37,367 bases of DNA from Bacteroidales bacterium (lineage in GTDB: Bacteria; Bacteroidota; Bacteroidia; Bacteroidales; JAAYJT01): assembly GCA_012522795.1 (NCBI GenBank), contig JAAYJT010000010.1:1-37367 (forward strand), in the 5' to 3' direction. Below the pieces are notes generated by a model. The model ran no database searches. It saw nothing but the letters and a program-made list of their open reading frames with translations, and was not told where the DNA came from. How positions within the stretch are numbered: position 1 is the stretch's first letter; every line of letters begins with the position of its first letter. Below are positions 124 through 33,825 of this stretch, one piece after another. The position numbers were made by a program, and so were the translations under genes.

Positions 124-924
124 CTATTTATAACATGAGAAAAGCCAGGGTAACAATCCTTCTTCTTTAAAGACATAATCCCATGCATTATGCCCGACTC
201 CAGGATAAAGTGTAAGGCTGGCATCAGCACCCGCTACTTTGAAAGCTTCAATCATTTTTACTGATAAAACAGGCTTTACCACTGTATCTTCTTCGCCATG
301 GAATGCCCTGATTTTCACATTCCTGATACCGGCATTTATAAAATCCGGATTTCCACCCCCACAAACCGGAAAAGCTGCAGCAAAAATTTCAGGTTTTCGG
401 TAAAGCAATTCAAAAGTTGCCATACCTCCCATTGAAAGTCCTCCTATATAAACACGTTGCAGATCGGTATAGGGTTCGGAAAGATAAGAATCAATAAGCT
501 CCAGCAGACAGCTCATAGGAGGCTTAGCTTCTTCTGTTGGATTGAAATCAAAATTGCGGCTTCCGTCATCATTGGTCGAAAACACCACATTAGCCCAGTA
601 ATTATCAGTTTTACACTGAGGAAAAATAACAATTGCCGGATAGTTTTTACGGTTAAACTCAGAAGCAAAAAACGAACCGCCATGCATAAGCTGTTTTTCA
701 TTATCATCGCCTCGCTCACCGGCACCGTGAAGAAAGAAAATCAAAGGGTATTTTCCGGAAGGATCAAAATCTTCGGGAAACATGACCCGGTACAGGAGGC
801 TGTCCTGTCCGCTGATGAATATTCTTTTTTCGTAGAGGCTGTTATCCTGCCCTAAAACAATAAAGGAACCGGGAAAAGATACCATTGCTGCAAATAAAAC
901 TATTTTTATCAACTTTATTCTCAT
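124..924 (-). CDS. Secreted alpha/beta-hydrolase esterase
   Basis: A 266-residue alpha/beta hydrolase of the dienelactone hydrolase/phospholipase-carboxylesterase kind. Visible are an oxyanion-type FLHGAGERG segment, the nucleophile elbow GLSMGG (Ser164 from this start), a probable acid in HGEEDT (Asp213) and the His in GVGHNAW (His245). The N-terminus (basic MRIKLIK followed by a hydrophobic run to VLGQ) is a signal peptide, so it should act in the periplasm or outside. The frame stays open to a GTG at 975 that overlaps the stop of the upstream transporter (GTGA), with another ATG at 936. I prefer the ATG at 924 because it gives a normal short signal peptide, but a coupled GTG start is possible. 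It is the last gene of the operon. In this setting removal of acyl substituents from the glycan is a reasonable guess; the substrate cannot be read from the sequence. Confidence 0.85.
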   Translation of the reverse strand: MRIKLIKIVLFAAMVSFPGSFIVLGQDNSLYEKRIFISGQDSLLYRVMFPEDFDPSGKYPLIFFLHGAGERGDDNEKQLMHGGSFFASEFNRKNYPAIVIFPQCKTDNYWANVVFSTNDDGSRNFDFNPTEEAKPPMSCLLELIDSYLSEPYTDLQRVYIGGLSMGGMATFELLYRKPEIFAAAFPVCGGGNPDFINAGIRNVKIRAFHGEEDTVVKPVLSVKMIEAFKVAGADASLTLYPGVGHNAWDYVFKEEGLLPWLFSCYK

Positions 925-971
925 AAAACTGAACATCAAAAATTTAAATTTCAAAACACTCACTTGTATTC

Positions 972-2411
972 TCACCCTGCATGATCCATTGATATTTGTT
1001 CAAGGGTTCTGCCTTTGGTTTCGGTAACATGTTTTTTAACGACCCAGAATGCTATCAGCCCGAAAGCTGCATAAATCCCGTATGACATACCCAAACCAAT
1101 AGATGTCAACAGAATAGGGAATGATATGGTTATCAAAAAATTAGAGCCCCACTGAACTAATCCTGCTACAGCAAGGGCTGCACCCCTGAATTTGTTTGGG
1201 AACATTTCGCCAAGCATGACCCACATAACGGGACCCCAGGTGAAGGCAAAAAATGCAATATAAGCATTGGCGGCCAGTAAAGCCATAATGCCCGTCTTAC
1301 CTGTCAATTCGAGACCTGCAGCACTGTCTTTTGAGCCGTAAGCAAATATGAGAGCCAGTATACCAAGCATAAGTGCCTGCCCCAAAGCTCCGATAAGTAG
1401 TAAAGGTTTTCGTCCAACGCGGTCAACAAGAGCTATCGCAACGAAAGTAAACAGCACATTTACCGAACCGCTTATAACATTGGTAAGCAAAGCATCGGCT
1501 TCAGTGAAACCAGCTGCCTGCCATAAAACTGAGCCATAGTAAAACACAACATTAATACCCGTAAATTGCTGCAAAGCAGCCAATGCCATTCCTACCCAGA
1601 CGATAGTATAAATTTTTCCGGAACCAGGATTTATTATATCAGAAAGCTGGGATTTACGCTCTCCTATAACTGTTTTTCTTATGGATTCAACTTGTAGATT
1701 TGCTGTTTTTATTTCAGTAAGTTTTGCAAGGATATTACGAGCCTTTTCATGTTTCCCGATTGCAACAAGATAGCGTGGTGATTCAGGAATAAGAAAAAGG
1801 AACAGGAAAAACAGCGATGCCGGTAAAACTTCTATCCAGAACATCCATTGCCATGCTTTGTAACCCCACCAGAAAGTTTCAGCAGCTCCGCCGGCACCAA
1901 GAGCAATATTGTAATTGGAGAAAAAAGCCATGAACAAACCCAGAACTATTGCAAGCTGCTGTAATGATATAAGCCTTCCCCTGATATGAGGAGGTGCAAT
2001 TTCGCCAATATATGCCGGCGATATTATACTTGCTGCTCCAACGGCAAGTCCTCCAAGTATCCTGTAGATAACAAATTCGGTGGAGCTGGAAGCAATTCCT
2101 GAACCCCAGGCGCTAATAATAAAAAATATTGCAGCTATCAGCAAGGTTTTCTTTCTACCAATTTTATCTGCCATATTTCCAGCAAAAAAAGCACCAACAG
2201 CGCATCCAAGTAGCATAGATGCAATATTGAAACCTGTGCCTACTACATCGGAATTGAATGCTTCCTGCAATGCATGAACAGTGCCGTTAATGACACCACT
2301 ATCAAAACCGAAAAGAAACCCTCCAGTAGCAGCAACAACAGTCAATGCTAATATCCTGATATGATTGATATTTCCGGATTGATTATTTGCGATCTTGTCT
2401 GTATTCATCAT
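972..2411 (-). CDS. Sugar-porter family MFS transporter (XylE/GLUT-like)
   Basis: A 479-residue, roughly 12-helix carrier of the major facilitator superfamily, sugar porter (SP) family. Hallmarks visible in order are GFLFGFDSGVI in helix 1, the DKIGRKK loop, RILGGLAVG, PESPRYL at the end of helix 6, QQFTGINVVFYYG in helix 7, DRVGRKP, and the C-terminal TETKGRTLEQI. These are the signatures of XylE/GLUT-type proton-sugar symporters, normally for monosaccharides such as glucose or xylose. It sits 73 bases after the GH3 beta-glucosidase. It therefore most likely takes up glucose released in the periplasm by that enzyme, complementing the GPH-type carrier further up the operon. Two consecutive ATG codons (2411 and 2408) offer starts; the first is used here. 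Its stop overlaps the alternative GTG start of the esterase gene. Confidence 0.93.
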   Translation of the reverse strand: MMNTDKIANNQSGNINHIRILALTVVAATGGFLFGFDSGVINGTVHALQEAFNSDVVGTGFNIASMLLGCAVGAFFAGNMADKIGRKKTLLIAAIFFIISAWGSGIASSSTEFVIYRILGGLAVGAASIISPAYIGEIAPPHIRGRLISLQQLAIVLGLFMAFFSNYNIALGAGGAAETFWWGYKAWQWMFWIEVLPASLFFLFLFLIPESPRYLVAIGKHEKARNILAKLTEIKTANLQVESIRKTVIGERKSQLSDIINPGSGKIYTIVWVGMALAALQQFTGINVVFYYGSVLWQAAGFTEADALLTNVISGSVNVLFTFVAIALVDRVGRKPLLLIGALGQALMLGILALIFAYGSKDSAAGLELTGKTGIMALLAANAYIAFFAFTWGPVMWVMLGEMFPNKFRGAALAVAGLVQWGSNFLITISFPILLTSIGLGMSYGIYAAFGLIAFWVVKKHVTETKGRTLEQISMDHAG

Positions 2412-2484: not shown

Positions 2485-4782
2485 TTATTGTAATAAAAAA
2501 GAAGCAGTGAGTACATCTCTGGAATTACCTCCTGTCATTATCAGAAATTCACCCGGTTCATAATCATACTCAAGATCATAATTATAGAATTTAAGGTCTT
2601 CAGTAGTTAATGTAAAAGATACTTTCTGCGATTCACCGGCTTTAAGAAATACTTTTTTGAACCCTTTAAGCTCTTTCACAGGGCGGGTAATACTTCCAAC
2701 AACATCGCGAATGTATAGCTGCACAACTTCAGCACCATTATAATTACCGGTATTGCTTAGCGTAACCTGAACATTTAACCTGTCACCCTCAGTAAGTATT
2801 TGTTTATCCAGTTTTAGTCCGGAATATTCAAATTCAGTGTAGCTCAGCCCATATCCAAATGGATATAAAGGTTCGTTTGGAATGTCGAGATAATTTGACA
2901 GGTATTTAGTGTACCACTCACCTTCCGGTAGTGGACGACCTGTGTTTTTATGACTGTAATAAACAGGAATCTGCCCTACATTTCGCGGAAAGCTAACCGG
3001 CAGTTTGCCTGAGGGACTCACATTGCCAAAAATCACATCGGCAACTGCATTTCCGGTTTGTGTACCTCCAAACCAGACGTTCAGAATAGCAGGAATATTT
3101 TCATCTTCCCATGTCAGTGATAAAGGTCGTCCTGTGAAAAGAACCAAAACTACTGGTTTTCCGGTTTTCAGTAGTGCTTTCAGCAATTGCTGCTGATTTC
3201 CGGGCAAGGAGATATCGGAACGACTAGCGCTTTCTCCGCTCATCTCAGCAGCTTCTCCCATTACTGCTATCACTACATCGGAATTCTGTGCTGCCTTTAT
3301 TGCTTCATCAAGCAGTTCTTCAGGAGTTTCCAGTTTATCAGCATCCAAACCTCCGTGTGCTGTAATACGCCGGATATATTCAGGGTCATCTATAATATTA
3401 CAGCCTTTTGCATAAATGATCTCTGCCCGGTCTGAAACAGCATCTCTGAATCCTTTGAGCACAGTAACCGATTGCGAATGATCTGCTGAAACGCTCCACA
3501 TACCTGCCATGTTCATCTTATTATCAGCCAGAGGTCCAATAAGAGCGATTTTTCCTTTTTTCTGCAATGGCAACAAATAATCCTGATTTTTCAGCAAGAC
3601 AAAAGTCTGAGCGGCAATATCGCGGGCTATTTCATTGTTCTTTTCTGTAAAAATCTCTTTTTCAATTCTTTCAGGTTCGCAATACAGATAAGGATCCTTA
3701 AAAAGGCCAAGCTTATATTTAGCTTCCAGAATTCTGCGGCATGATCGTTCAATCATTGATTCAGTGATTTTTCGCTGCTCAAATGATTTTCCCAGCGTAG
3801 AGATATAGCCTTCGCCAATCATATCCATATCAACGCCTGCATTTAAAGCCAATGCAGAAACTGTCTGCAAATCGCCAACACCATGATTGACCATTTCGTT
3901 AATGGCTGTATAATCAGTAACCACGAAACCTTTAAAATCCCACTGATCCCGCAACACTTCCGTAAGCAGCCATTTATTTCCTGATGCCGGAATACCATCA
4001 ACCTCGTTAAATGAAGTCATAACACTTCCTGCACCTGCTCTGATAGCAGCCAGAAAAGGAGGAAAATACTCATTGAACATGCGAATACGGCTCATATCAG
4101 TGGTGTTGTAATCATGTCCTCCCTCAGCGGCTCCATATAATGCAAAATGTTTTACACAAGCCATGATAGTATGAGAATCAGCAAGGTTATCTCCCTGATA
4201 TCCACGAACAAAGGCTTCCGCAATTCTGGAAACCAGAAAGGGATCTTCACCCCCACCTTCAGCTATCCTACCCCATCGCGGGTCACGGGTAATATCAACC
4301 ATAGGCGAGAAATTCCAGCATATGCCATCGGCACTTGCTTCAATAGCTGCAATTCGTGCACTTTGCTCAATAAGTTCCATATCAAAACTACTTGCCAGCG
4401 CCAAAGGAATAGGGAAAATTGTTTTATATCCATGAATGACATCCATTCCAAATATCAAAGGGATCCCGAGCCGACTTTCATTTACCGCCACTTCCTGCAA
4501 AGTCCGGATTTTTTCAAGCGATTTCACGTTAAGTAAGGCTCCTACCCTGCCCTCCTTTATATTTTTTCCAATCTCAGATGCTGTAACCTGCCCTGTAATA
4601 ATGTCTTCATAGCCTGCAAGCAGATTCAGTTGCCCGATTTTTTCCTCAATTGTCATTTTCTGCATCAGGCTAGTAATAAAAGCATCCATTTCCTTATCGG
4701 AAGTTTGCTTCACTGAATTATTGCACGAGATCAGCAAAGCAGCAAAAAACAATGTCAACAAAAAAGGCTGAAATATTCTCAT
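2485..4782 (-). CDS. GH3 beta-glucosidase lipoprotein (BglX-like)
   Basis: A 765-residue glycoside hydrolase family 3 enzyme that removes terminal beta-linked glucose. A lipoprotein signal ends in LLISC (Cys20). The N-terminal (beta/alpha)8 domain contains the KHFALYGAAEGG substrate-binding segment (about 211-222) and the nucleophile Asp290 in GFVVTDY. The second domain carries GESASRSD with a candidate acid/base Glu. The C-terminal part (about 660-760) is the fibronectin III-like domain usual for BglX proteins, and the full length is normal. The residues after Cys20 (NNSVKQ) are not acidic, so I expect it to face the periplasm rather than the cell surface. Some GH3 enzymes from Bacteroides and Listeria prefer sophorose and longer beta-1,2-gluco-oligosaccharides; given the GH144 and GH94 neighbours that is the likely substrate here. 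Spacing to the upstream SGNH gene is 8 bases, so cotranscription is clear. Confidence 0.93.
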   Translation of the reverse strand: MRIFQPFLLTLFFAALLISCNNSVKQTSDKEMDAFITSLMQKMTIEEKIGQLNLLAGYEDIITGQVTASEIGKNIKEGRVGALLNVKSLEKIRTLQEVAVNESRLGIPLIFGMDVIHGYKTIFPIPLALASSFDMELIEQSARIAAIEASADGICWNFSPMVDITRDPRWGRIAEGGGEDPFLVSRIAEAFVRGYQGDNLADSHTIMACVKHFALYGAAEGGHDYNTTDMSRIRMFNEYFPPFLAAIRAGAGSVMTSFNEVDGIPASGNKWLLTEVLRDQWDFKGFVVTDYTAINEMVNHGVGDLQTVSALALNAGVDMDMIGEGYISTLGKSFEQRKITESMIERSCRRILEAKYKLGLFKDPYLYCEPERIEKEIFTEKNNEIARDIAAQTFVLLKNQDYLLPLQKKGKIALIGPLADNKMNMAGMWSVSADHSQSVTVLKGFRDAVSDRAEIIYAKGCNIIDDPEYIRRITAHGGLDADKLETPEELLDEAIKAAQNSDVVIAVMGEAAEMSGESASRSDISLPGNQQQLLKALLKTGKPVVLVLFTGRPLSLTWEDENIPAILNVWFGGTQTGNAVADVIFGNVSPSGKLPVSFPRNVGQIPVYYSHKNTGRPLPEGEWYTKYLSNYLDIPNEPLYPFGYGLSYTEFEYSGLKLDKQILTEGDRLNVQVTLSNTGNYNGAEVVQLYIRDVVGSITRPVKELKGFKKVFLKAGESQKVSFTLTTEDLKFYNYDLEYDYEPGEFLIMTGGNSRDVLTASFLLQ

Positions 4783-4790
4783 ATAACAGG

Positions 4791-5465
4791 CTATTTTATC
4801 AGTTTGTCTTCAAGAGCTTTTTTCCAGATATCATATCCTTTTTCATTCATATGAAGCATGTCTTCAAGAAATAATGAGGGATCAGGATTACCGTTGCTAT
4901 CGAGCATTGAATCCCAGATGTCAATATAAATAAGACTTTGCTCTTCATCAATAAATCTCTGTATCCTCCTGTTGGCTTCATAAAACCGTTCTGCAAGATG
5001 CCATCTGTCAGGACTTGGTTTCATTGAAACATAAAGCACCGACACATCGGGCAATTCAGAGCGTATTATCTTGTACAGGGTAAGAAATCGTTCAAATACT
5101 TCGTCAGTAGTCAACTGGTCGTCAAATGCAAGATCATTTTCACCACAATAGATAACAATTTGTCGTGGCAGATACGGGAAAACAACATCACCGGCAAAAT
5201 ATATCTGGTCGCTTAGGGTTGAACCACCGAAAGCACGGTTGATTATATCAATATCCGGAAAATACTTTTCCAGGTCAGTCCATATCGTAAATGAAGAACT
5301 GCCGATAAACAAAACTGATCCGGGTTTAGGAGGATTTGTTTTGTCAATTTCCCTGAATTCACGTATTGCATTAGCAAAATGATGTTCGTTTTCCTGAGCA
5401 AGAACAGGAAAATGAAATGCAAGAAATAAAATGAAAGCTATTAATCTGTTGTATTTCATACTCAT
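4791..5465 (-). CDS. Secreted SGNH/GDSL-type hydrolase
   Basis: A 224-residue SGNH hydrolase. Signal peptide about 1-23 (ends PVLAQ). The four SGNH blocks are visible: block I FIGSSSFTIW (Ser57 as nucleophile), block II Gly in RAFGGST (about 80), block III GEND (Asn110), and block V DMLHMNEKGY with the Asp/His pair. The family includes carbohydrate O-deacetylases and other ester hydrolases; the exact ester cannot be told from sequence. The gene is tightly packed between the GH94 (4-base gap) and GH3 (8-base gap) genes, which ties it to the same glycan. Removing acetyl or succinyl groups from substituted beta-1,2-glucans would fit. A second ATG six bases downstream (5459) is an equally good start. 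Confidence 0.88.
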   Translation of the reverse strand: MSMKYNRLIAFILFLAFHFPVLAQENEHHFANAIREFREIDKTNPPKPGSVLFIGSSSFTIWTDLEKYFPDIDIINRAFGGSTLSDQIYFAGDVVFPYLPRQIVIYCGENDLAFDDQLTTDEVFERFLTLYKIIRSELPDVSVLYVSMKPSPDRWHLAERFYEANRRIQRFIDEEQSLIYIDIWDSMLDSNGNPDPSLFLEDMLHMNEKGYDIWKKALEDKLIK

Positions 5466-5469
5466 AGGA

Positions 5470-8400
5470 TTATATATTGATTTCTATCATATTTTCATTT
5501 TTATCAAGAAAACCTAAGAGATAAGTTTTCTCGATCACTGAGCCTCCTTCACGGTACTCATTCTTTTCTCTTAGGAATTGAAGCTCGTTTCCGTTAACTA
5601 TGATTTTTTTCGGGCTATAACACCTGTTCCTAACTCTGTAAATAATTCTGACCTTTTTACCCAACAAATCAAATGATACTATTAATCCATCCATTGCCAA
5701 AGGCAAAACAGGGTCAAAAACAATTCTCTCAGATTCAACCCTTAAGCCAAGCAAATGTTGGATGATCAAACCAGTGTATATGCCCGGACCACTTGAATAA
5801 ACCCTCCATCCCCCTTTTAGTGTGACCCTGCATTTAGCGATCTTCTTATACAACTTGTCAGCTTCGTAACGATTACTGAATGCAACGTCAGAACTGCTGT
5901 AATAACAATTTGATTGGCGTAAATCACCACAAGGCACAACTTCACTGTATTCAATAGGTATAACCTGACGAAGAGCCTTGATAAACTCATCAGCTTTTCC
6001 TGTAACAGCAAGTGATTCGGCATAGCGAACATGCTCGTGCATATACATCAGACCTATTTCACGACCAAAAAATACACTGCTCTCAGCCCTTTGAAAAATA
6101 TTTTGTATTCCTCCCCTGTATTTTAGAGGGCGATCCATTAAACGGGCACCGTCAGGTCCTTTCAAATGCTTTTCAATTATCTGCTGATGATATTCTGCTT
6201 GTTTTTTAGTGAACAGTCCGCTTATTATACCTCTGTTCATTGGTAAAATACTGTATTTTATTCCTGTGACCCTGTCCGAAGGATGAAGCAAGAGGCTGAT
6301 TCTGCCATTTTTACCAATAAGACCATAACCGGCAACAACAGAATCTTTTATCAGGAACCTGTTAAAATCAGTTTTTATATTCCTGCAAATTTTTCTCAGT
6401 CGCTTCGCATCATTTTTCCTGCCAGCCATATCACAAACCTCTGCGTATTCATTAAATGCCTGATAATTCATTTCCACTGTCCAGGAGGATATCATACGGT
6501 CAGCAAGTTCCTGACTTACAGGTTGTAATGAATCATTCCAATCACCACCTCCAAATGGCACAAAATAAGTATCCGGTATAAATGAATCTGTGATCATGTT
6601 AATCAACCTGTCAACATGTTCATATAGCGGTGTTTGTTCTTTGTTACCTTTACCATCATTGCGATAATAAGGCAAAACTTCATCGAGGATATTACGGTCG
6701 CCTGTAATTTTTATATATCTGCTCAAAGCAATGATACACCAGTAGATAATATCTCCGTGAGCATGGTCGGAACGGATATTTTTATACCTGTCAAACATCC
6801 ACCACTGTGGCCAGCCTCCATCAGGGTTCTGATTTGAGAAGATGATACAAAGTATTTTCCTGGTTTCTGAATATTTACCCATACTTAGTAACAAATCTAT
6901 TGGTCCCTGGGCAACATCACGGGTACCCCACGCTGCGCCACTAAATTGTTCCAATCCGTATGGGGTCAGATAATGTATCAATGCATTCATGCCAAACCAG
7001 GGCAGAATTTCATTTATTGCCGATATATCGTGATGTGGGCTTTGAAGAGAAAGATTCTGACTGAGATTTTTCCATATTTCCAAAGCATTATTCTTATCTT
7101 TAACAAATTGTGCATCAGAATCCTCAAACTTTTCAAATTCCGCTTTTTTCTCAACTTCACCAAGAAAGCTCATTGAAAACTCTCTTGCTTTCGCAATATC
7201 AAGAACAAAAAATGAAGCACAACGACTTTGATGATCGCTATATAGTATTTCATCGCCTGCTACATGGTAATCTGACGAACCATTGATCCTTATCCTGAAT
7301 TGAGCATCAGGAAACTTTTCTGAAATCAGGCTTTTCTGAAAGGGCTTACATATTAATTCATGTTCAGCATCGCCACTTAAAGCAGTCCAGTTAATAACCC
7401 TGTCAAACTGATTGGTAATCAATATTTTCACTGGCTCACCCTTAAGCACTTTAAAGTCCAGATTCACCTGCGGAGCAGTCTTTGAAGTCCAGATCCGAAC
7501 CTGAAAAGCAGAATCCTTATACTTGTAAATCCATCTGCAATGGTTCAAACCGGTTTCAAAAGCAGAAGGTACACCCAGCAGGTAATATTTGCTGTTTAGT
7601 TCAAGAAATATCCTTTGACCCGTTTCCGGATCCTGATTAAACTGACTTGAACATACTGAGAGAAGGGTGTTAAAATTGGTGTTGCCCTGAGTTAGATGTG
7701 AATTGAAAGCGCCAAAAGCAAATGAAGTGGTTGAAACAATGCTTTCATCAGGTTCATAACCAGATTTTGCCTGTATAATATGTCCATGAGAACGATCGCA
7801 CAGAATTTCTTTAAGGCGGAAAGCAACGTGATTATTTTCTCCATAAAAAAATGAAAGCAGTTTGCCATCCTTATATTCAGCATGGCGGTAATCAGTGCCA
7901 AAAAAGGTTTCCAGCTCTTCATTAGTCAGGTCTTCACCAGAAAGTAATCCGGAACTGGTAAATATGCTACTGACAGGATTTTTCAGTCCTTGTGAATAAT
8001 AAATTGATCCGGCTTCATTAAATTCATTGATCAGTTCAGGTAGCAGACTCAGATCAGTGTTTGAAGTTGCCAAAGGATGGTCATGAAGATATTTACAAAC
8101 AAAAACACTGCAATGACTTTCATTGGATTCAATCCTGAAAGGCTGTTCCTGCAATGCAACAACCGATGATTCTCCGGCATATTCACCATTGGGGCTTTCT
8201 GAAGCCAGGGCTTCCGGAATAAAGGTTTCGCGAAAAGTTTTACCATAAAACAACATACCATCAGTCAGGGCTGAAGCAGCGCAATTTTTACACGCAAGCA
8301 TCATCCATGGATTCCCGCTTGCTTCCTTCATATTCTGGCGGCAACAAATTACCTTTCCATAAATAGGGTCTTCAAGAATTCTCCTTTCAATATACTGGCT

Positions 8401-8811
8401 TACATAATACTCATTTACCAATCCATCCTGGATCTGTTTCAAGCCTATATCCTGAACCATTATCAAATCAAGTTCAACTGACTGACTATTCCGGTTTGTG
8501 GTTTCTATTCTCCATTGCCAGCTATGGCTATGTTCAGAAAGTTGCAACTCACAAACATATTCTATCCCTTCCCAGATGCCTTTTGCTGTGAATCTGTTAT
8601 CTTTTATCGCAAATGCACTATTACTTCCTGCTCCTGTAAGAGCTTTGAATTCAATGATATCTGATCTCTTACGCAGAAAAATATTTGCTCCTGAATATCC
8701 AAAAAGGGTAGCATTTTTCATGCTTATCCTTATCGGGTCTGCCTCAATACTTTTTACTGAGCCATCATCCTGAAAATAAATACTTAGTCCATGCTTATTT
8801 AAAATTTTCAT
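5470..8811 (-). CDS. GH94 phosphorylase, probable 1,2-beta-oligoglucan phosphorylase
   Basis: A 1113-residue glycoside hydrolase family 94 (former GT36) phosphorylase with no signal peptide, hence cytoplasmic. The N-terminal half (to about 560) is the long beta-sandwich region. The (alpha/alpha)6 catalytic domain follows, with PYGLEQFSGAAWGTRDVAQG (617-636), NQNPDGGWPQWW (660-671), DHAHGDIIYW (682-691) and GGGDWNDSL (754-762). The last carries the family's catalytic aspartate. Cellobiose and chitobiose phosphorylases are near 800 residues; about 1100 is the size of the sophoro-oligosaccharide (1,2-beta-oligoglucan) phosphorylases described from Listeria and Lachnoclostridium. The proposed reaction is release of alpha-glucose 1-phosphate from beta-1,2-gluco-oligosaccharides using inorganic phosphate. 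Its ATG directly abuts the stop of the GH35 gene, suggesting coupled translation of two cytoplasmic enzymes. Family assignment is firm; linkage specificity is inferred from length and neighbours. Confidence 0.9.
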   Translation of the reverse strand: MKILNKHGLSIYFQDDGSVKSIEADPIRISMKNATLFGYSGANIFLRKRSDIIEFKALTGAGSNSAFAIKDNRFTAKGIWEGIEYVCELQLSEHSHSWQWRIETTNRNSQSVELDLIMVQDIGLKQIQDGLVNEYYVSQYIERRILEDPIYGKVICCRQNMKEASGNPWMMLACKNCAASALTDGMLFYGKTFRETFIPEALASESPNGEYAGESSVVALQEQPFRIESNESHCSVFVCKYLHDHPLATSNTDLSLLPELINEFNEAGSIYYSQGLKNPVSSIFTSSGLLSGEDLTNEELETFFGTDYRHAEYKDGKLLSFFYGENNHVAFRLKEILCDRSHGHIIQAKSGYEPDESIVSTTSFAFGAFNSHLTQGNTNFNTLLSVCSSQFNQDPETGQRIFLELNSKYYLLGVPSAFETGLNHCRWIYKYKDSAFQVRIWTSKTAPQVNLDFKVLKGEPVKILITNQFDRVINWTALSGDAEHELICKPFQKSLISEKFPDAQFRIRINGSSDYHVAGDEILYSDHQSRCASFFVLDIAKAREFSMSFLGEVEKKAEFEKFEDSDAQFVKDKNNALEIWKNLSQNLSLQSPHHDISAINEILPWFGMNALIHYLTPYGLEQFSGAAWGTRDVAQGPIDLLLSMGKYSETRKILCIIFSNQNPDGGWPQWWMFDRYKNIRSDHAHGDIIYWCIIALSRYIKITGDRNILDEVLPYYRNDGKGNKEQTPLYEHVDRLINMITDSFIPDTYFVPFGGGDWNDSLQPVSQELADRMISSWTVEMNYQAFNEYAEVCDMAGRKNDAKRLRKICRNIKTDFNRFLIKDSVVAGYGLIGKNGRISLLLHPSDRVTGIKYSILPMNRGIISGLFTKKQAEYHQQIIEKHLKGPDGARLMDRPLKYRGGIQNIFQRAESSVFFGREIGLMYMHEHVRYAESLAVTGKADEFIKALRQVIPIEYSEVVPCGDLRQSNCYYSSSDVAFSNRYEADKLYKKIAKCRVTLKGGWRVYSSGPGIYTGLIIQHLLGLRVESERIVFDPVLPLAMDGLIVSFDLLGKKVRIIYRVRNRCYSPKKIIVNGNELQFLREKNEYREGGSVIEKTYLLGFLDKNENMIEINI

Positions 8812-11247
8812 TTAACTATATTTTAAAGTGAGCAAAATTTCCTGCTTGTGTTTATGAGGGTAATTAATTACAAGGCGATCATCAGAATAATTTAAATCAA
8901 TCTGTTTATCATCAAGATGGATCAGACTGATATTTTTAACTCCCTCACCTTCCAAAACAATTTCACCCTTAAGATCCCTGTCGCCATACAACCTGAAGCC
9001 AATTTCATCCTTATTTACTGCAATGTCAAGAATATCGGAAGTGCTGTGAAGAAGCCTGATCTCATCAGTCACTGGCAGACAAATGGGTGTAAGAATGCTA
9101 TACAGGGGAGGAATCAGGATATCTTCACCTGAATACGGAATATGAACAATTTCTCCATTCGCTGGATTCGTGTATGATATTCTGGATTTTTGCACTTCGT
9201 TGAAATAATTGCCAATAAAAAGAATTCCTGAATCTTCGCGAGTAAATCTTTCTCTCACTGTAACATTATCATTAGAGGAAACTGCCAGTCTTAAAACAGC
9301 TTCTGATCTGCGTAACAAAGCTTCATAAACCGGCTTATGTCCTTCGGTATCAAACCCGAGCCAGGTTCCCAGGAAAACAACACTGCCTTTGCCGGATTTC
9401 TTAATAAAACCACAAGCTGTTTCATTAAGGGTTCGTGCAATGATTTCAGCATCACCCAAGGATTTATCAGCAAAAACAATTTGCGGATTTGCGCATTTAA
9501 TATCTTTAAAGCCAAGGATATCAATCAAAGGCGAGTTTATAACTTCTGCCTTTTCAGGATGACAGTTTAATGTGTCTCTGAGAACAGAACATGGTTCCTG
9601 CCTTAAAGTACGATCAGGCAAATACGGATATATTACCAATTGTCCGCCATTACTTGCATAATCGGCTAAAACCTGCTGATCTTCTGCATCCATTTCATCA
9701 GTACAAAAAGCCCATACCTGAGCATACTTCCCAAGACTTTCAGCAGAAGCTCCGATCAGATCAGCCATGTCATAGTCAATATTCAGAACCTGCAACACTT
9801 TTAGTAAACCATCGAAATACGCAGGACGGCGAATTTTTGAAGGAACAAATCTGAGATCACAAGCTCCATTTTCAGGTCGTTCAAGTTCGGTAGCATAATA
9901 CGGAGGATAAAACAAAACACAGATATCTGCTTTGCGTTCAGCATTAACTATCAAATTCTCTGACACTTTAATAAGTCTGCTCATACGTTCTACCAGGTCA
10001 AAGGCAGAACTACGTTCACCTTGTGCATTAAGCGGAGTGAACCAGTAAAAGGTATCTCCCGAATATCCTTTATGTTCCGGATTAAGCCCTTGCGAAAACA
10101 TATAATAATTCCACCCTTTTAGCCCGTTGGCAATACTTGCCTTGTAAAACAGCTCCATCTCACGTGGATTGGTCACAACGTGGTATTCGCGTGAGCCACT
10201 CTGAAACTCAGCAGCAAACAAAGGTTTATCTCCCTGTATTGTAGCTGTTATATCATTAATAATACGATTATCGTGCATATTACGGTAAGAAACAAACTCC
10301 GGTATATGATCAACCCCGAAAATGATCTCACTTTTATCGCCAAACAAATCATCGTACATGGTGATATTTACCGGAAATTCATATCCGCTGCCATAAATCC
10401 AGCCAGGCAGGTTATGAAATAAAAGCAATCCAATATTTTTCTCTCTGATCATGGCGGTAAGTAGTCGTAAGTATTCGCCATAATAACGGCGCCAGAATCT
10501 ATGCCATTCATAGTCTCTGCTTCTATCACCTTTTGAAGTGTAAGGTCTCACGCCATCAGGAGGAGGCTCAACATTGTCAAATGATTGATAATCAGTATCC
10601 CAAAGTCTGTTTATTTCCGAAACCGAATTAAATGTTTGTTGCAGATATTTTACAAAGAGGTTTTTTACTTCTCCGCCATAATCAGCCTGATGGGCAAGCC
10701 ATGAAAACACACCTATTTCATTGCATAATTGCATCATGATTACAGGACCACCGGCATCAACTTCCTGACTGCCAATCAGTGGCATGATCTGGTCGTACCA
10801 CAATCTGACTTTTTCAAGATAAACCGGATGAAAAAGATTAACTCCTTCACTATCGACAATTTCCCCTTTTTGGTTCCTCATTTTAACATCATCACCATGT
10901 TTTTCAAGAAACCAGTCAGGGAGACCTGCTCCACGAAATTCAGCAAGAATAAAAGGTCCGGGTTTTACAATACAGTACAAACCATGTGATTTACATTTCT
11001 GCAACCACAATTTCAAATTTCGTTCAGGGCTGGTAGTTCCATCAAAATCAAATAATCCTTTTTCAGGTTCATGCCATGCCCATGGAATATAAGTGCTTAC
11101 AGCAAACAAACCGGATTCTTTTGCGGCTTCCAGGTGCTTATCCCATAAGCTCTGCTTTATCCTGAAATAATGGATCTCGCCTGAATTGAGGAATATTTTC
11201 CGGTCGTTAAAATAAAAACTGTCTTTCTTATAGCTGAATGTCATCAT
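8812..11247 (-). CDS. GH35 family enzyme, candidate beta-1,2-glucosyltransferase
   Basis: An 811-residue clan GH-A protein of family GH35, with no signal peptide, so cytoplasmic. Family landmarks are SGEIHYFRI (22-30), YIPWAWHEPEKG (53-64), VKPGPFILAEFRGAGLPDWF (94-113), the acid/base Glu177 in QLCNEIG and the nucleophile Glu347 in FAAEFQSG. C-terminal domains to about 811 resemble the beta-rich accessory domains of the family. Standard annotation would be beta-galactosidase, but nothing else in this operon handles galactose. A GH35 protein from Ignavibacterium album, encoded beside endo-beta-1,2-glucanase homologues, is known to be a beta-1,2-glucosyltransferase acting on sophoro-oligosaccharides. 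This gene has the same kind of neighbours and directly abuts the GH94 gene. I infer a transglycosidase or hydrolase on beta-1,2-gluco-oligosaccharides; beta-galactosidase remains possible. Family call high, activity moderate. Confidence 0.85.
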   Translation of the reverse strand: MMTFSYKKDSFYFNDRKIFLNSGEIHYFRIKQSLWDKHLEAAKESGLFAVSTYIPWAWHEPEKGLFDFDGTTSPERNLKLWLQKCKSHGLYCIVKPGPFILAEFRGAGLPDWFLEKHGDDVKMRNQKGEIVDSEGVNLFHPVYLEKVRLWYDQIMPLIGSQEVDAGGPVIMMQLCNEIGVFSWLAHQADYGGEVKNLFVKYLQQTFNSVSEINRLWDTDYQSFDNVEPPPDGVRPYTSKGDRSRDYEWHRFWRRYYGEYLRLLTAMIREKNIGLLLFHNLPGWIYGSGYEFPVNITMYDDLFGDKSEIIFGVDHIPEFVSYRNMHDNRIINDITATIQGDKPLFAAEFQSGSREYHVVTNPREMELFYKASIANGLKGWNYYMFSQGLNPEHKGYSGDTFYWFTPLNAQGERSSAFDLVERMSRLIKVSENLIVNAERKADICVLFYPPYYATELERPENGACDLRFVPSKIRRPAYFDGLLKVLQVLNIDYDMADLIGASAESLGKYAQVWAFCTDEMDAEDQQVLADYASNGGQLVIYPYLPDRTLRQEPCSVLRDTLNCHPEKAEVINSPLIDILGFKDIKCANPQIVFADKSLGDAEIIARTLNETACGFIKKSGKGSVVFLGTWLGFDTEGHKPVYEALLRRSEAVLRLAVSSNDNVTVRERFTREDSGILFIGNYFNEVQKSRISYTNPANGEIVHIPYSGEDILIPPLYSILTPICLPVTDEIRLLHSTSDILDIAVNKDEIGFRLYGDRDLKGEIVLEGEGVKNISLIHLDDKQIDLNYSDDRLVINYPHKHKQEILLTLKYS

Positions 11248-13081: not shown

Positions 13082-16000
13082 TTAGTAATAAATCAGTAGC
13101 TCGGCAGGAATTTCGTTGATCATGATCTCGTTATTAGTGAAATGCCTGGTTTCCTTGCTGTTAATCATAACTTTTAAAGGCAGTTTTGAACTGTTGAAAT
13201 TCTTAATTTTGATCCCGTTAGTAGGCAATTTAACATCGCCGGAAACTGAAAAACGATAGAAATCGTATTCTTTTTTGATTGAATATGATATTTCTCCGAA
13301 ATAAGTAGGGAGATCTTCCACTGACATACCTTCGGGAGAGTCAATCCAATCCTGATAAAGCGCCGGAGCTAACACAAGGGACTGATCATATTCGTTTTCA
13401 TAAACAAACATTGTCCGAAAAGCATTAATAAAATCGCTGCCTACCCAGGTATGGGGCATATCGCCTATGAACCGGGGTACACGGTAATCTTTCCATACAA
13501 TCTCAGCCCAGTGATACCATCCCTGAGGCCGCTGATCATCAAGCAAAAATTCCAATAGCTCATGTGCCCTGTCGGGCTGGTCAAGTATGATAAAAGAACC
13601 AATCAAACGGTTTTCATAAGGTGTGTAATCCCGCCATTCTATTTTAGTATCCCTTCGATCCTTGAAATATTCATAATACTTATTGAAAGTATTGTAAATC
13701 TGAGGTTTAGGCAGATTTTTCAATTCATTGCAGGGAGTAAGTGCCACAGTAGTTGAGGTGGCATCAAAATCACCAAGTTCCACGCAACCTGGTATAAAAT
13801 CAATGCCCCTGATTTTCATTGCAGCTCTGATTGAATTGTAAAGATTAACTTCAAAAGTGTCTTTCAACATTTTAATCCGCTCATAATTTTCGGTTTCGCC
13901 AAGTATCTTTTGAATTTCTGCAGCATCCTTCAAACCTTTTATTGTAAAAAAATTATCCCAGTATGAGTGCATTGGCTTCTCTGAATAGCCCTCATGACTG
14001 ATAGATTCCGGAACCAACCCATAATATGCTCTAACGCTGTCGTTACCATATTTAAAATGATCAACTGAACGTTCTGCCACGAGCGATGCAATGTAATCTG
14101 CAGCCATTAACACATGTTTATTTTTCGAACGCAAAAAAGCAGTGTCTTTTGTGAAATTGAAATATTCGCGTATCAGATAAATCAGTTGACCGTGACTGTC
14201 GTTTTCCGGCACAGGGTCAGGACCACGGAAATCAACCACACATGGAACCTTACCGTTTTCATACTGATGTGGTGCATACCAGTTAATAAAATCCCTCACT
14301 TCATCAATAATTCCGGATTTCAACAATGCTGAAGATGTTAATGCTCCATCGCGTATCCAGCTTCTTTCATACGAACGCGAACCCGGCTGAATACCAGCTA
14401 AATCGCGATTAATAAGTATGTAGATCAGGTTGGCTTTATATGTATTTATAATCCTGTCAGCCGAAGATGGCAGATTAAACCTGATTTTGTCAACTTTTGA
14501 CCTCCAGAAATCTGCTGATTTGTTAAATTCAACACTGGCAGCATCAGGGTCTGAATTTTGATCAATAAAAGCTTCTTCATAAAATGGAATAAGCATGTAA
14601 AACTCTTTAATACCGCCCGGATTCAGATTTAAAGAATATTTTATCACACCGCTAACAAGTCCGTGCTCATCGGTAACACTGGTTATATCCGGCATTAAGC
14701 CTTTTGAGAGCAGATCAGCAATATTTCCATTATCGAAACTTACAGCTCCCAAAGCATCATATTTTTGTTGTGGTATTATTACTTTATCATTTACTGCTAT
14801 TACTCCGTTATCTTCGCTGATGCTTTTGATCTTCCCCACTCCTCCCGGTAAATTCAGGAACTGGTAATACGGATTGACCTGAAAAGGACGTATAATCAAA
14901 AACAAATCAAATTCAATTGGCTCCGTGTTCCTATTTTCAAGTGTATAACGTATATCGAGCATTGAGTTCTTATTTGCTTCACCTATTGAAGCAACAGAAA
15001 CAGAGAGTTTTATACCTTCACACAACCACTGAACTGTGGGCAGGAAAGTAAAGTTTTCATACCTTCCGTCAAAACCAAGGGATTGCGACTTCTGAACGTT
15101 ATTCCAGTTATAAAGTTTGTTATTTGCCCTGATCATGGGTTCAATTGAAAAAGAAGCCTTGTCAGCCTCTATCATACCATCTTCGTTTATCAAAGCTTCC
15201 CTGACATCATTATTCACTCCGCTGATAGTCCAGTATGAAGCCTGTTCAGTAAAATACCGGGGATAATACCCTAATGCAGAATTTTTGGCAACATATCTGA
15301 AAAAATCATTAGGAGTCAGGGATTCCAATACTTCAAGGAATTCAATTTCCCTGATCCCGTATCCCTTTTCTGAAGAGAAATTTATAAGTTCAAGGCGTAA
15401 GAACCGTGCCTGAGCCTCAGGCAAACGAATAAAACTAACATCTGTCTGGTTGTTCCTGACTGAATAGGCTTTCTCCCAATCCCTGGCATCACCTGAGATA
15501 AATACATCAAAATCTTTTGCAAAATGATCTTCCAGCCATCTTATCTGCAAGCCTCCGAATTCACGGCTCATTTTAAAATCAATATTTACCGTTTGATTAC
15601 CCGAACATTTGCTAAACCAATATGTCTCTGCTGACCTGTCCAGCATATTATCTGCTGTATTGTTTTTCAGAAGCGATGAAGTATTTACTGATGGCTGCGG
15701 ATATTCTTTTATCTCTGCTGGCAGAGGTTCGAACTTCAGGTCATCAAGCCATATAGTACCTTTGCCGCCAACAAAGGAAGCAATTGTGAATTCAATCCGG
15801 TCAATACGCTTCAGGTTTCTGTCGCTTGCAGGACCCCATGCAAAATCAATATGGCGCTTTTTTATACGGATTTTCTTCCATTCTTCAGGAAATTTATAAT
15901 TGCGGTTATTCACCCACCAGACATTGTCGCCGGATTCGTCAATAAACTTGATTTCAAAATTATTATCAGGCGATTGGGCTTTCAGATAAAAAGTAAATTC

Positions 16001-16261
16001 ATAATTCTCAGGAAGATCAATCGGAAAAAACTTCTGAACCCCACCATAACCGGTACCTTTCGTAAAATCATAATCAAAACGGATGGCTTTACCAGTCAAA
16101 CCCTGTTCAATATCAAGCTTAAGCTCAACACCATCAGATTTTATAAAATTCCAGCCTTCAGTGGTTTCAAATTCATCAAGAACTATGATCTGGGAAAACA
16201 AAAACCGGCATATCAACAGGAGCAAAAATAAAGCAATAAACCTTGAGTAGTATCTATTCAT
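13082..16261 (-). CDS. Secreted CBM-discoidin-alpha/alpha-toroid putative glycosidase
   Basis: A 1059-residue exported protein. Layout by eye: signal peptide 1-23; a CBM11/CIA30-like jelly roll (about 25-180, starting LDEFETTEGW and ending TIWLDDLKFEP); an F5/8 type C discoidin domain (about 187-312); a beta-sandwich linker domain (about 317-595); an alpha/alpha toroid (about 597-952); and a small C-terminal beta domain. The toroid has SWIRDGALTSSALL, a PENDSHGQLIYLIREYF segment, VELGDFDATSTT and WAEIVWKDYRVPRFIGDMPH. These recall GH15/GH63/GH94-type six-hairpin glycosidases, but I cannot assign a known GH family. Candidate acids are the Asp of WIRDG, Glu of VELGD and Glu of WAEIVW. The frame extends to a TTG at 16270, but ATG 16261 gives a proper signal peptide. 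It lies 30 bases after the second GH144 gene. Most likely it attacks or binds beta-1,2-glucan fragments in the periplasm. Confidence 0.8.
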   Translation of the reverse strand: MNRYYSRFIALFLLLLICRFLFSQIIVLDEFETTEGWNFIKSDGVELKLDIEQGLTGKAIRFDYDFTKGTGYGGVQKFFPIDLPENYEFTFYLKAQSPDNNFEIKFIDESGDNVWWVNNRNYKFPEEWKKIRIKKRHIDFAWGPASDRNLKRIDRIEFTIASFVGGKGTIWLDDLKFEPLPAEIKEYPQPSVNTSSLLKNNTADNMLDRSAETYWFSKCSGNQTVNIDFKMSREFGGLQIRWLEDHFAKDFDVFISGDARDWEKAYSVRNNQTDVSFIRLPEAQARFLRLELINFSSEKGYGIREIEFLEVLESLTPNDFFRYVAKNSALGYYPRYFTEQASYWTISGVNNDVREALINEDGMIEADKASFSIEPMIRANNKLYNWNNVQKSQSLGFDGRYENFTFLPTVQWLCEGIKLSVSVASIGEANKNSMLDIRYTLENRNTEPIEFDLFLIIRPFQVNPYYQFLNLPGGVGKIKSISEDNGVIAVNDKVIIPQQKYDALGAVSFDNGNIADLLSKGLMPDITSVTDEHGLVSGVIKYSLNLNPGGIKEFYMLIPFYEEAFIDQNSDPDAASVEFNKSADFWRSKVDKIRFNLPSSADRIINTYKANLIYILINRDLAGIQPGSRSYERSWIRDGALTSSALLKSGIIDEVRDFINWYAPHQYENGKVPCVVDFRGPDPVPENDSHGQLIYLIREYFNFTKDTAFLRSKNKHVLMAADYIASLVAERSVDHFKYGNDSVRAYYGLVPESISHEGYSEKPMHSYWDNFFTIKGLKDAAEIQKILGETENYERIKMLKDTFEVNLYNSIRAAMKIRGIDFIPGCVELGDFDATSTTVALTPCNELKNLPKPQIYNTFNKYYEYFKDRRDTKIEWRDYTPYENRLIGSFIILDQPDRAHELLEFLLDDQRPQGWYHWAEIVWKDYRVPRFIGDMPHTWVGSDFINAFRTMFVYENEYDQSLVLAPALYQDWIDSPEGMSVEDLPTYFGEISYSIKKEYDFYRFSVSGDVKLPTNGIKIKNFNSSKLPLKVMINSKETRHFTNNEIMINEIPAELLIYY

Positions 16262-16291
16262 GAAGATCAATATTTTGTATTTCCAATTTAT

Positions 16292-17680
16292 TTATTTCTG
16301 TGTCAGATACTCATAACCTAGTTTTTTCAACCCATTCTGAATTATACGATCTTTCATTACATAATTCCAGACCAGTCCTGACCTGAAGTTCTCAATCATA
16401 ATGATCATTGGTCCCTCAGCAATTCCCAGAAAATCGTCGTTTACCCAGTTAGCCGTGGGATTAAATGCATCATAATAGCCGTATTTACCCCATATTTTTG
16501 AACCATATCTTTTGTTTATTGCTTTGATGGTTGGTAAAACGATTTCAGGCGTAAAAGGCAGGGATGATAAAGAGGCATAAGGTGCAATGGTACCATCATC
16601 GAAATAATTAAAATCTGGTCCGCTTGTTCCTCTGCCTGCATATCCCAGAAATTCTCTTCCATTGGCATTGTATTTCTCAGTAGGACCATCACTGGCTGTT
16701 ATGCCCCAGCACAATGAGTCATAACCCTTCCATCCATAAGGATTATCCATGGCATATAATCTTTGCACAAAAGTAGCACGCCTGGAATTCTCAAAATAAT
16801 CAATGCCCTTTTCTTTCATATAGGGATCCACCAACCCACGATAGTCAATAAATGCATGAGAAAACTGATGACCAAACAAAGGCGGGAATACCACATGTGA
16901 ATAACCTTCGTAAGGAGTTTGCCATTTGTACGAGCTTAACCATGCGTTATAGCTTCTTTCTATATTTTCCATTCCAGTGCCGGCAGCAAGAGTGTAAAGA
17001 AAAAGTCCCTCATTATATCCATACCAACCCCAGTCAGTCCTGCCTTCCTCCGGCGACCAGCCCATTGATATAGTGTAAGGATGACGACTTTCAGCAGGCA
17101 TAGCAAAAATACTCCAGTCCATCCCTTCAAGTAATTTATCAGCATACAGACGTATTTGTGTTTCTGTTATATTATCTATGTTAAAATAGTTTCGTGCGAA
17201 AATGATCCCCATCATCAAAATACCTGTATCAATTGATGAAAGCTCACACTTCCATTCGCGTGTACCAGAATTCATTCTAAGAAAATGATAAAAAAATCCT
17301 TTATATCCGGTAGCATTGGTATCAGCACTCTGAGGCGCATTGTAAAAAAAATCCAGAATATTCATCACTATTTTGGCAGCATCTTCCCGTTCTATCCAGT
17401 TTCTTTCAATTCCCACAGCAAAAACCGGAATAGCAAAGCCGGTAGAGGCAATACTTGATGGCGCCCACTCTGAAGCACGGTCTTTTACAATTCCCCACTC
17501 CGGATGATGCTCGTTAACAAAAAACTGAAAAGTCTTTTTCTGTATAGTGTCAAGCATAAGTTCATCACCGGCTGACAAAGGATAATCAACCTTTCCATGA
17601 GATTTGAAAATCTGTTTTTCCGGTTGCCCACAAGACATTAACAGGGTTAGAAAAAACAAAAATAATGTACTGATCCTCAT
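16292..17680 (-). CDS. GH144-type (PF10091) glucanase lipoprotein, short form
   Basis: A 462-residue glycoamylase-domain (PF10091) protein. The short N-terminus MRISTLFLFFLTLLMSC gives a lipobox at Cys17, followed directly by the catalytic (alpha/alpha)6 toroid. Conserved points are FAVGIERNW, the GWYGYNE segment (Glu224, presumed general acid), GWKGYDSLCWGITASDGP, LSSLPFTPE and GYYDAFNP near the C-terminus. Genome pipelines call this family glucoamylase, but characterised bacterial members (GH144, founded on the Chitinophaga pinensis enzyme) are endo-beta-1,2-glucanases, and at least one Parabacteroides member releases sophorose. The open frame continues 19 codons upstream to 17737, but that extension would put hydrophilic residues ahead of the lipoprotein signal, so I chose the ATG at 17680. 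Residues after the Cys (GQPEKQ) are not acidic, suggesting a periplasm-facing lipoprotein. It may belong to a related beta-1,2-glucanase family rather than GH144 proper. Confidence 0.85.
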   Translation of the reverse strand: MRISTLFLFFLTLLMSCGQPEKQIFKSHGKVDYPLSAGDELMLDTIQKKTFQFFVNEHHPEWGIVKDRASEWAPSSIASTGFAIPVFAVGIERNWIEREDAAKIVMNILDFFYNAPQSADTNATGYKGFFYHFLRMNSGTREWKCELSSIDTGILMMGIIFARNYFNIDNITETQIRLYADKLLEGMDWSIFAMPAESRHPYTISMGWSPEEGRTDWGWYGYNEGLFLYTLAAGTGMENIERSYNAWLSSYKWQTPYEGYSHVVFPPLFGHQFSHAFIDYRGLVDPYMKEKGIDYFENSRRATFVQRLYAMDNPYGWKGYDSLCWGITASDGPTEKYNANGREFLGYAGRGTSGPDFNYFDDGTIAPYASLSSLPFTPEIVLPTIKAINKRYGSKIWGKYGYYDAFNPTANWVNDDFLGIAEGPMIIMIENFRSGLVWNYVMKDRIIQNGLKKLGYEYLTQK

Positions 17681-17765
17681 ATTATTAACAAGGTTTTGAA
17701 ATGGTTTATTCTTATTCTTACAAATCATTATAATCATTTTACTTATTTCTTAATTCAGAAAAACA

Positions 17766-29063: not shown

Positions 29064-29107
29064 TTGAAAACAAATCAAAGTCAAATAATTACCGATAATT
29101 TCAGTAC

Positions 29108-29989: not shown

Positions 29990-30007
29990 TAAAACAGACA
30001 GGTAGAA

Positions 30008-32022: not shown

Positions 32023-32118
32023 ATTAAATAAAATTTAATTTTGAACGATTTGATATTGATTTTGAATTAATAAAAGTACACTGACTAATAAAAAGTAGGA
32101 TTGACAGACTAAGAAAAA

Positions 32119-33822: not shown

Positions 33823-33825
33823 AAA

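What the first reader, a model, noticed from the sequence alone, without database searches (positions are those of the whole stretch)
8812..11247. GH35 protein probably not a beta-galactosidase
It has both GH35 glutamates (Glu177, Glu347) but no signal peptide, and it directly abuts a cytoplasmic GH94 phosphorylase gene in a glucan locus. A GH35 member from Ignavibacterium with comparable neighbours is a beta-1,2-glucosyltransferase. Automatic annotation would miss this.
Basis: partly seen in the sequence, partly recalled or inferred. Interest (0 to 1): 0.7.

Follow-up and report, generated by a model that had tools for sequence, protein, structure and literature searches.

The report
GH35 beta-1,2-glucosyltransferase paired with phosphorylase
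A bacterial protein that software would label a beta-galactosidase is most likely an internal enzyme that shuffles glucose units between short beta-1,2-glucan chains, working hand in hand with the phosphorylase encoded next to it (and once found fused to it), probably so that the two-sugar leftover is not wasted.

Summary
The nearest solved relative is the Ignavibacterium album beta-1,2-glucosyltransferase (IaSGT, EC 2.4.1.391; 534 bits, model Z 45.8), far ahead of beta-galactosidases (at most 92 bits). The protein belongs to a clade ('SGT-II' here) sister to IaSGT's (100/100). In 83 SGT-II proteins the catalytic, -1 and +1 positions listed for IaSGT are essentially invariant (Arg349: 83/83); only the +2 subsite differs, in all 83. 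All 58 loci with at least 3.8 kb of downstream DNA carry SOGP, and in one genome the two are a single 1923-aa protein. The window's genome has one GH3 (exported) and no GH1. I propose that SGT-II recycles sophorose, which SOGP cannot cut: 2 Sop2 -> Glc + Sop3, then Sop3 + Pi -> Sop2 + Glc1P, like MalQ with MalP. This role is inferred; IaSGT kinetics argue partly against it. The enzyme kind is known; the variant clade, the SOGP partnership and the fusion were not found described in the papers searched.

The parts
8812..11247 (-). GH35 protein, 811 aa, predicted beta-1,2-glucosyltransferase of a clade sister to IaSGT ('SGT-II')
10717..10719 (-). Glu177 codon, predicted acid/base (IaSGT Glu176)
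10207..10209 (-). Glu347 codon, predicted nucleophile (IaSGT Glu343)
10189..10191 (-). Arg353 codon (IaSGT Arg349, side chain that holds glucose at subsite +1); 83 of 83 in the clade
   Evidence: role from PMC8861115
10927..10929 (-). Ala107 codon (IaSGT Gln106, subsite +2); Ala in 83 of 83 SGT-II, Gln in 10 of 11 SGT-I
10060..10062 (-). Ser396 codon (IaSGT Tyr392, subsite +2); Ser in 83 of 83 SGT-II, Tyr in 10 of 11 SGT-I
5470..8811 (-). [quoted passage not shown] starts on the base after the GH35 stop codon
11275..13065 (-). GPH-type (MFS_2) sugar:cation symporter, presumed inner-membrane importer of sophoro-oligosaccharides
   Evidence: present in 68 of 69 loci with at least 2.1 kb upstream of SGT-II
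13082..16270 (-). Exported 1062-aa protein: F5/8-type C domain, then a region modelled as supersandwich plus (alpha/alpha)6 barrel; no Pfam catalytic family
16292..17737 (-). GH144-like protein (Pfam PF10091), exported
17766..19745 (-). GH144-like lipoprotein with Big_5 domains; matches endo-beta-1,2-glucanase 5gzh and BDI_3064 5z06
19816..21054 (-). Lipoprotein with Big_5 and Laminin_G_3 domains, possible surface glycan binder
21081..22577 (-). SusD-like lipoprotein
22590..25643 (-). SusC-like TonB-dependent receptor
4791..5465 (-). Exported GDSL/SGNH hydrolase, possible esterase acting on glucan substituents
   Evidence: role is inference
2485..4782 (-). GH3 BglX-type beta-glucosidase with lipobox (outside the cytosol); the only GH3 found in the genome
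972..2411 (-). Sugar porter family MFS transporter, presumed glucose importer
   Evidence: substrate is inference
124..975 (-). Exported alpha/beta-hydrolase esterase

Best explanation
The GH35 protein is a cytosolic, retaining beta-1,2-glucosyltransferase (transglycosylase). Glu347 takes a glucose from the non-reducing end of sophorose or a longer beta-1,2-gluco-oligosaccharide (Sopn), Glu177 acts as acid/base, and the glucose is passed to the 2-OH of an acceptor glucose that Arg353 and main-chain atoms hold tightly at subsite +1, so that water is a poor acceptor. Its main job is to serve the adjacent phosphorylase. Outside the cytosol GH144 enzymes cut beta-1,2-glucan; SusCD and the GPH symporter bring oligosaccharides into the cytosol; SOGP removes glucose 1-phosphate one unit at a time but stops at sophorose (Sop2). 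The transferase disproportionates the stranded sophorose (2 Sop2 -> glucose + Sop3), and Sop3 goes back to SOGP. Net: Sop2 + Pi -> glucose + glucose 1-phosphate without a cytosolic beta-glucosidase. It works like amylomaltase (MalQ) serving maltodextrin phosphorylase (MalP). Shown by computation: kinship, residues, gene linkage, fusion, absence of a recognisable GH1 or cytosolic GH3 beta-glucosidase in this genome. Inferred: the transferase activity (about 0.9 likely), sophorose disproportionation as its main role (about 0.5), the direction of transport.
For: Kinship: 534 bits to IaSGT against 215 for GlmA and at most 92 for beta-galactosidases; tree 100/100 for SGT-I and for SGT-II, the two joined at 100/97; model Z 45.8 over 697 residues to 7x87. 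Residues: -1 (Y52, N175, E176, N275, E343, Y378), +1 (G278, W279, D309, R349) and aglycone (F180, L183) positions are the same in every one of 83 SGT-II proteins that has a residue there (81 at Y52, with 2 gaps) and in 11 of 11 SGT-I; E102 and L100 in 82 of 83; V179 is V or L. Coupling: SOGP on the same strand in 58 of 58 loci with at least 3.8 kb downstream; 17 of 71 measured gaps are exactly 0 and 12 overlap; L034 encodes both as one 1923-aa protein with all GH35 and SOGP domains and no stop. In 395 Bacteroidota genomes SOGP was found only in the window's. SOGP does not cut Sop2 (PMC5309861 and PMC3960220, passages). In Listeria a GH3 beta-glucosidase sits beside SOGP; here GH3s of the loci are exported (27 of 28) and 15 of 35 fully covered loci have none. 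The own genome has no GH1 and one exported GH3; GH1 occurs in 3 of 34 further SGT-II genomes; 4 of those 34 have a single GH3, and it is fused to a beta-lactamase domain.
Against: IaSGT uses sophorose poorly as its own acceptor (Km 120 mM, kcat/Km 0.069 per s per mM) and prefers aryl and alkyl glucosides (PMC8861115); SGT-II may do the same. The +2 residues that contact a Sop2 acceptor in IaSGT (Gln106, Tyr392) are lost in SGT-II (Ala, Ser), which could weaken rather than improve it, while Glu102, blamed for the clash at +2, is kept in 82 of 83. Beta-glucosidases of other families (GH5, GH30, GH116 and so on) were not searched, and 30 of the 34 further genomes have two or more GH3 genes, whose location was mostly not checked. 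SGT-I loci do without a full SOGP, so the family does not need one. The fusion is a single case in a metagenome assembly. No activity data exist.
Confidence: 0.6

Rival explanations
1. It is a beta-1,2-glucosyltransferase as in IaSGT, but its real acceptor is an unknown cytosolic glucoside: sophorose from SOGP is only the donor and the product is a beta-1,2-glucosylated glucoside.
For: IaSGT has Km values of 0.02-0.4 mM for glucoside acceptors with sophorose as donor (PMC8861115); the hydrophobic aglycone pocket is conserved in SGT-II.
Against: No gene for making or using a glucoside was recognised in the window; the invariant partner is SOGP (58 of 58), and one natural fusion joins the two.
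Confidence: 0.22
2. It is a cytosolic hydrolase, a beta-1,2-glucosidase that splits sophorose to two glucoses and so fills the place of the missing beta-glucosidase.
For: The clade fits the gap left by SOGP in genomes without recognisable GH1 or cytosolic GH3 beta-glucosidase; the +2 subsite has changed, and hydrolysis is the usual GH35 reaction.
Against: The features tied to transfer in IaSGT, strong +1 binding by Arg349 and the hydrophobic pocket, are invariant or nearly so.
Confidence: 0.12
3. It is a beta-galactosidase or beta-1,2-galactosidase that happens to sit in a glucan locus, as Bxy_22780 does beside GH144 in Bacteroides xylanisolvens.
For: Most characterised GH35 enzymes are beta-galactosidases; the Bxy_22780 case shows that context can mislead (PMC11739564).
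Against: Bxy_22780 lies in the beta-galactosidase group, far from SGT; this protein lies with IaSGT. Of 11 other GH35 proteins from relatives, none has Leu100, Arg349 or Tyr397, which SGT-II keeps.
Confidence: 0.03
4. It is an exo-beta-D-glucosaminidase of the GlmA kind.
For: GlmA is the second-best match in sequence (215 bits) and fold (Z about 40 over about 750 residues), and the longer C-terminus resembles GlmA's.
Against: The GlmA aspartate for the 2-amino group (Asp178) is Asn in 83 of 83; the NCBIfam GlmA model scores 234 against a cut-off of 1500; no chitosan genes were seen in the window.
Confidence: 0.03

Closest known systems
IaSGT (IALB_1185), beta-1,2-glucosyltransferase, EC 2.4.1.391, GH35
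   Same: Catalytic pair, -1 and +1 residues, aglycone pocket, no signal peptide, GH144 genes nearby, TIM barrel plus Rossmann-like domain
   Different: 38% identity, separate clade; +2 subsite Gln106/Phe391/Tyr392 replaced by Ala/Tyr/Ser in 83 of 83; about 100 residues longer C-terminus; partner is full SOGP plus a GPH symporter instead of an ABC importer (ABC genes seen by Pfam here in one SGT-I locus, L127)
TkGlmA exo-beta-D-glucosaminidase, GH35
   Same: Overall fold including a long C-terminal region; most -1 residues
   Different: Asp178 to Asn; +1 and aglycone residues differ; about 29% identity
GH35 beta-galactosidases (for example SpBgaC, 4e8c/4e8d)
   Same: TIM barrel and catalytic glutamates
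   Different: Only 313-314 residues align with SpBgaC; Leu100, Arg349 and Tyr397 positions differ in the 11 GH35 proteins compared; 18-25% identity to these
LpSOGP and LiSOGP, 1,2-beta-oligoglucan phosphorylases (neighbour gene)
   Same: All SOGP domains; ligand residues N138, Y141, Q621, R630, D631, W758, D760, R907, R916, E917, Y922 and H924 of LpSOGP match in the alignment (compared by eye)
   Different: Partner is a GH35 transferase instead of the GH3 beta-glucosidase of the Listeria cluster
MalQ/MalP (amylomaltase with maltodextrin phosphorylase), recalled, as an analogy
   Same: A transferase rescues short chains that a phosphorylase cannot use
   Different: Unrelated folds and linkage; an analogy of working, not of membership

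Membership tests
GH35 | Pfam GH35 over curated cut-off, acid/base and nucleophile glutamates in a TIM barrel | tested here: met
   143 bits against 27; Glu177/Glu347; model
beta-1,2-glucosyltransferase (SGT, EC 2.4.1.391) | Groups with IaSGT and apart from GlmA and beta-galactosidases | tested here: met
   SGT-I plus SGT-II 100/97, each 100/100 (bootstrap had not fully settled, long branches for GlmA and some GH35)
beta-1,2-glucosyltransferase (SGT, EC 2.4.1.391) | -1 residues Y52, E102, N175, E176, N275, E343, Y378 | tested here: met
   All present in the window; in 83 SGT-II rows: 81 Y plus 2 gaps, 82 E plus 1 R, then 83 of 83 for the other five
beta-1,2-glucosyltransferase (SGT, EC 2.4.1.391) | +1 residue Arg349 and the hydrophobic aglycone pocket | tested here: met
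   R 83 of 83; L100 82 of 83; F180 and L183 83 of 83; V179 V 72, L 11
beta-1,2-glucosyltransferase (SGT, EC 2.4.1.391) | Transfer of glucose between Sopn without hydrolysis | not testable with these tools
   Needs enzyme assay
IaSGT-type +2 subsite (describes IaSGT; does not define the reaction) | Gln106, Phe391, Tyr392 | tested here: not met
   A, Y, S in 83 of 83; hence 'variant', not ortholog
GH35 beta-galactosidase | Groups with beta-galactosidases and shares their subsite residues | tested here: not met
   Outside them in the tree; Cys at position 100 in 9 of 11 and Asp at 397 in 11 of 11 of the compared GH35 proteins, Leu and Tyr here
GlmA exo-beta-D-glucosaminidase | Asp178 for the amino group | tested here: not met
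   Asn in 83 of 83
SOGP (adjacent gene) | N-terminal SOGP domains and ligand residues | tested here: met
   SOGP_N, SOGP_2nd, GH94 and SOGP_4th over cut-off; 12 ligand residues match (compared by eye; the printed alignment is cut before Y1004/S1005)
SOGP (adjacent gene) | Phosphorolysis of DP 3 and longer, none of Sop2 | not testable with these tools
   Known for LiSOGP and LpSOGP

The most novel reading that the evidence does not exclude
SGT-II and SOGP form a near-obligate cytosolic pair, in at least one genome a single bifunctional protein, that together act as a 'sophorose phosphorylase' cycle: a beta-linked counterpart of the MalQ/MalP logic that gives a physiological reason for a GH35 transglycosylase, with the altered +2 subsite as the adaptation to sophorose as acceptor.
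Probability: 0.45. Interest if true: 0.65.

Novelty: new variant of a known kind. Interest (0 to 1): 0.48.

Why it matters
The IaSGT paper left the physiological acceptor open. A sister clade tied to a phosphorylase with a known blind spot for sophorose makes one answer testable with two enzymes and one sugar. It also marks a group of Bacteroidota genes that automatic pipelines would name beta-galactosidase, and offers a natural fusion as a tool for making or breaking beta-1,2-glucans.

Tried and rejected
Beta-galactosidase and glucosaminidase readings: rejected on tree, residues and fold. Resting the case on context alone: rejected after the Bxy_22780 example. Homologs without Arg349, said by the IaSGT paper to be many: none found; only the best 80 of 155 relatives were kept and other phyla could not be centred on, so the link between Arg349 and a beta-1,2-glucan locus could not be tested with a contrast group. 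Loci without SOGP: of 80 loci, 72 showed SOGP at 100 bits or more and L070 a fragment at its contig end; of the other seven genomes five have SOGP elsewhere in the assembly and two (those of L023 and L043) none; all seven have less than 3.8 kb downstream. In L020 SOGP lies 5.3 kb away. Plasmid search: 74 records, no place covering 80% of the query. NCBIfam: no model over cut-off for this protein or for the three further pieces tried. Gap counts: 71 of 80 loci measured; L034 (fused), L052 (ORF call failed) and loci without SOGP in the locus were dropped. Residue counts: 83 SGT-II rows, 11 SGT-I (two fragment loci, L099 and L100, left out), 11 GH35 proteins from loci L101-L119 (two SGT-II loci and those without a matching complete ORF left out). 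Tree: 25 of the 83 SGT-II rows.

Full report
What is there. The finding's interval holds one ORF on the minus strand, 811 aa, ATG to stop. It is the only GH35 gene in the genome (2.88 Mb in 100 contigs, 97% complete). Directly downstream, with no spacer base, starts a 1113-aa GH94 protein with all SOGP domains, closest to LpSOGP. In order of transcription the operon-like run reads SusC, SusD, LamG/Big_5 lipoprotein, GH144, GH144, a 1062-aa exported protein, GPH symporter, GH35, SOGP, SGNH hydrolase, GH3, sugar porter, esterase. Of the 13 genes tested only GH35 and SOGP lack an N-terminal export or membrane segment.

Kinship. Against all PDB sequences the four best distinct sequences are IaSGT and its variants (about 534 bits), then archaeal GlmA-type enzymes (205-215), then GH35 beta-galactosidases (92 and less). 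In 395 Bacteroidota genomes three carry a full-length relative (the window, G148, G416); the next hits are ordinary GH35 proteins matching only the first 200 or so residues at 129 bits or less. A maximum-likelihood tree of 49 proteins puts the window in a clade of 25 (SGT-II, 100/100), sister to a clade of 12 with IaSGT (SGT-I, 100/100), joined at 100/97, GlmA next and the 11 GH35 proteins outside (LG+G4, bootstrap not fully settled, GlmA on a long branch). The predicted model (pLDDT 89.4) matches IaSGT structures at Z 43-46 over about 695 residues; GlmA at Z about 40 over about 750 residues, because it shares the long C-terminal region; beta-galactosidases reach at most Z 35 over 313-488 residues.

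Active site. With IaSGT numbering from PMC8861115, 83 SGT-II proteins and 11 SGT-I proteins share the -1 and +1 residues and the aglycone pocket almost without exception, including Arg349, which that paper calls the key residue and reports as not conserved in many homologs. At +2 the clades differ: Gln106 to Ala, Tyr392 to Ser and Tyr at 391 in 83 of 83 SGT-II (SGT-I: Gln 10 of 11, Tyr392 10 of 11, Phe391 8 of 11), and Glu104-Asn105 to Arg-Gly in nearly all SGT-II. Of 26 barrel positions that are fixed within, but different between, the clades, Q106/A107 and Y392/S396 are among the +2 contacts listed in the paper. So the donor glucose and the first acceptor glucose should be bound as in IaSGT, and what lies beyond them differently. 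Whether that makes sophorose a better acceptor is not decided by sequence.

Partnership. The genome-contig scan kept the best 80 of 155 relatives, 57-67% identical. SOGP lies on the same strand downstream in 58 of 58 loci with at least 3.8 kb there, the GPH symporter upstream in 68 of 69 with at least 2.1 kb there (L063 lacks it), at least one GH144 in 49 of 50 with 9.9 kb upstream (cross-matches between the two GH144 queries are not separated), and the 1062-aa protein in 44 of 50. Of 71 measured gaps 17 are exactly zero, 12 overlap, 52 are 50 bases or less. In L034 the two genes are one ORF of 1923 aa, carrying the full GH35 and SOGP domain sets in order and no stop. Compared with separate-gene relatives the stretch around the stop and start codons is missing, which fits a real in-frame deletion rather than one misread base (by eye). 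The record is titled Limisphaerales but may be misbinned. In 395 Bacteroidota genomes SOGP was found in the window's alone. In 12 SGT-I loci none has a full SOGP or a GPH symporter; one has a shorter GH94, 11 have GH144 and 10 the 1062-aa protein next to or near SGT (several of these loci are cut by contig ends); one examined by Pfam (L127) has an ABC importer.

Why a transferase beside SOGP. SOGP acts on chains of three or more and not on sophorose. In Listeria the gap is filled by a GH3 beta-glucosidase beside SOGP. Here GH3 genes near SGT-II carry export signals in 27 of 28 cases, the exception being a start that was probably called too late, and 15 of 35 loci with about 10 kb on both sides have none. 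The window's genome has one GH3, the lipoprotein in this locus, and no GH1. Of 34 other SGT-II genomes 3 have GH1; all 34 have some GH3, but in 4 of them the single GH3 is joined to a beta-lactamase domain, an architecture that I recall as typical of N-acetylhexosaminidases. A transferase that turns two sophoroses into glucose and sophorotriose would let SOGP finish the job. IaSGT is known to disproportionate Sop2-5 without net hydrolysis. Against this, IaSGT does it poorly (Km 120 mM for Sop2) and much prefers glucosides; its authors suggest that sophorose is its donor and leave the physiological acceptor open. The role is therefore a hypothesis; the enzyme class is well supported.

What is known. 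SGT is a recognised GH35 activity (EC number given in PMC11739564). In the full-text library the term IaSGT is used in this sense by one paper only (the two other papers listed are on viruses and public health); GH35 with glucosyltransferase and SOGP gives the same paper alone; GH144 with GH35 gives nine papers, of which three were opened (PMC8861115, PMC11739564, PMC12369401); the listings showed no title or abstract start describing such a pair. I therefore found no description of the SGT-II clade, its pairing with SOGP or the fusion, within those searches and without access to supplementary figures.

Verdict. The added result is a distinct sister clade with a changed +2 subsite and a near-invariant phosphorylase partner, including one natural fusion.

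Noticed in passing
window 13082-16270 (-); orthologs in 44 of 50 SGT-II loci with 9.9 kb upstream and in 10 of 12 SGT-I loci: Exported 1062-aa protein with an F5/8-type C domain and a region modelled as supersandwich plus (alpha/alpha)6 barrel (GH65/GH94/GH116-like folds, Z 20-25) but no Pfam catalytic family; a steady neighbour of SGT in both clades, possibly an unclassified beta-1,2-glucan-active enzyme.
   Followed up: partly
L034:10001-15769: Natural in-frame fusion of the GH35 transferase with SOGP, 1923 aa, in a MAG titled Limisphaerales.
   Followed up: yes
L120:7398-9779: IaSGT-type locus with a 793-aa GH94 lacking the SOGP N-terminal domains, perhaps like IALB_1177.
   Followed up: no
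window 4791-5465 (-): Exported SGNH hydrolase between SOGP and GH3; orthologs in 8 of 80 loci. Possibly removes ester substituents from beta-1,2-glucans.
   Followed up: no
L195-L198: In four SGT-II genomes the single GH3 is a GH3 plus beta-lactamase-domain protein of 980-1050 aa.
   Followed up: partly
window 26027-27655 (-): DUF3843 protein of unknown function at the upstream end of the glucan locus.
   Followed up: no
window 28071-36580 (+): MoxR ATPase, vWA and BatD gene run on the opposite strand, seemingly unrelated to the glucan locus.
   Followed up: no
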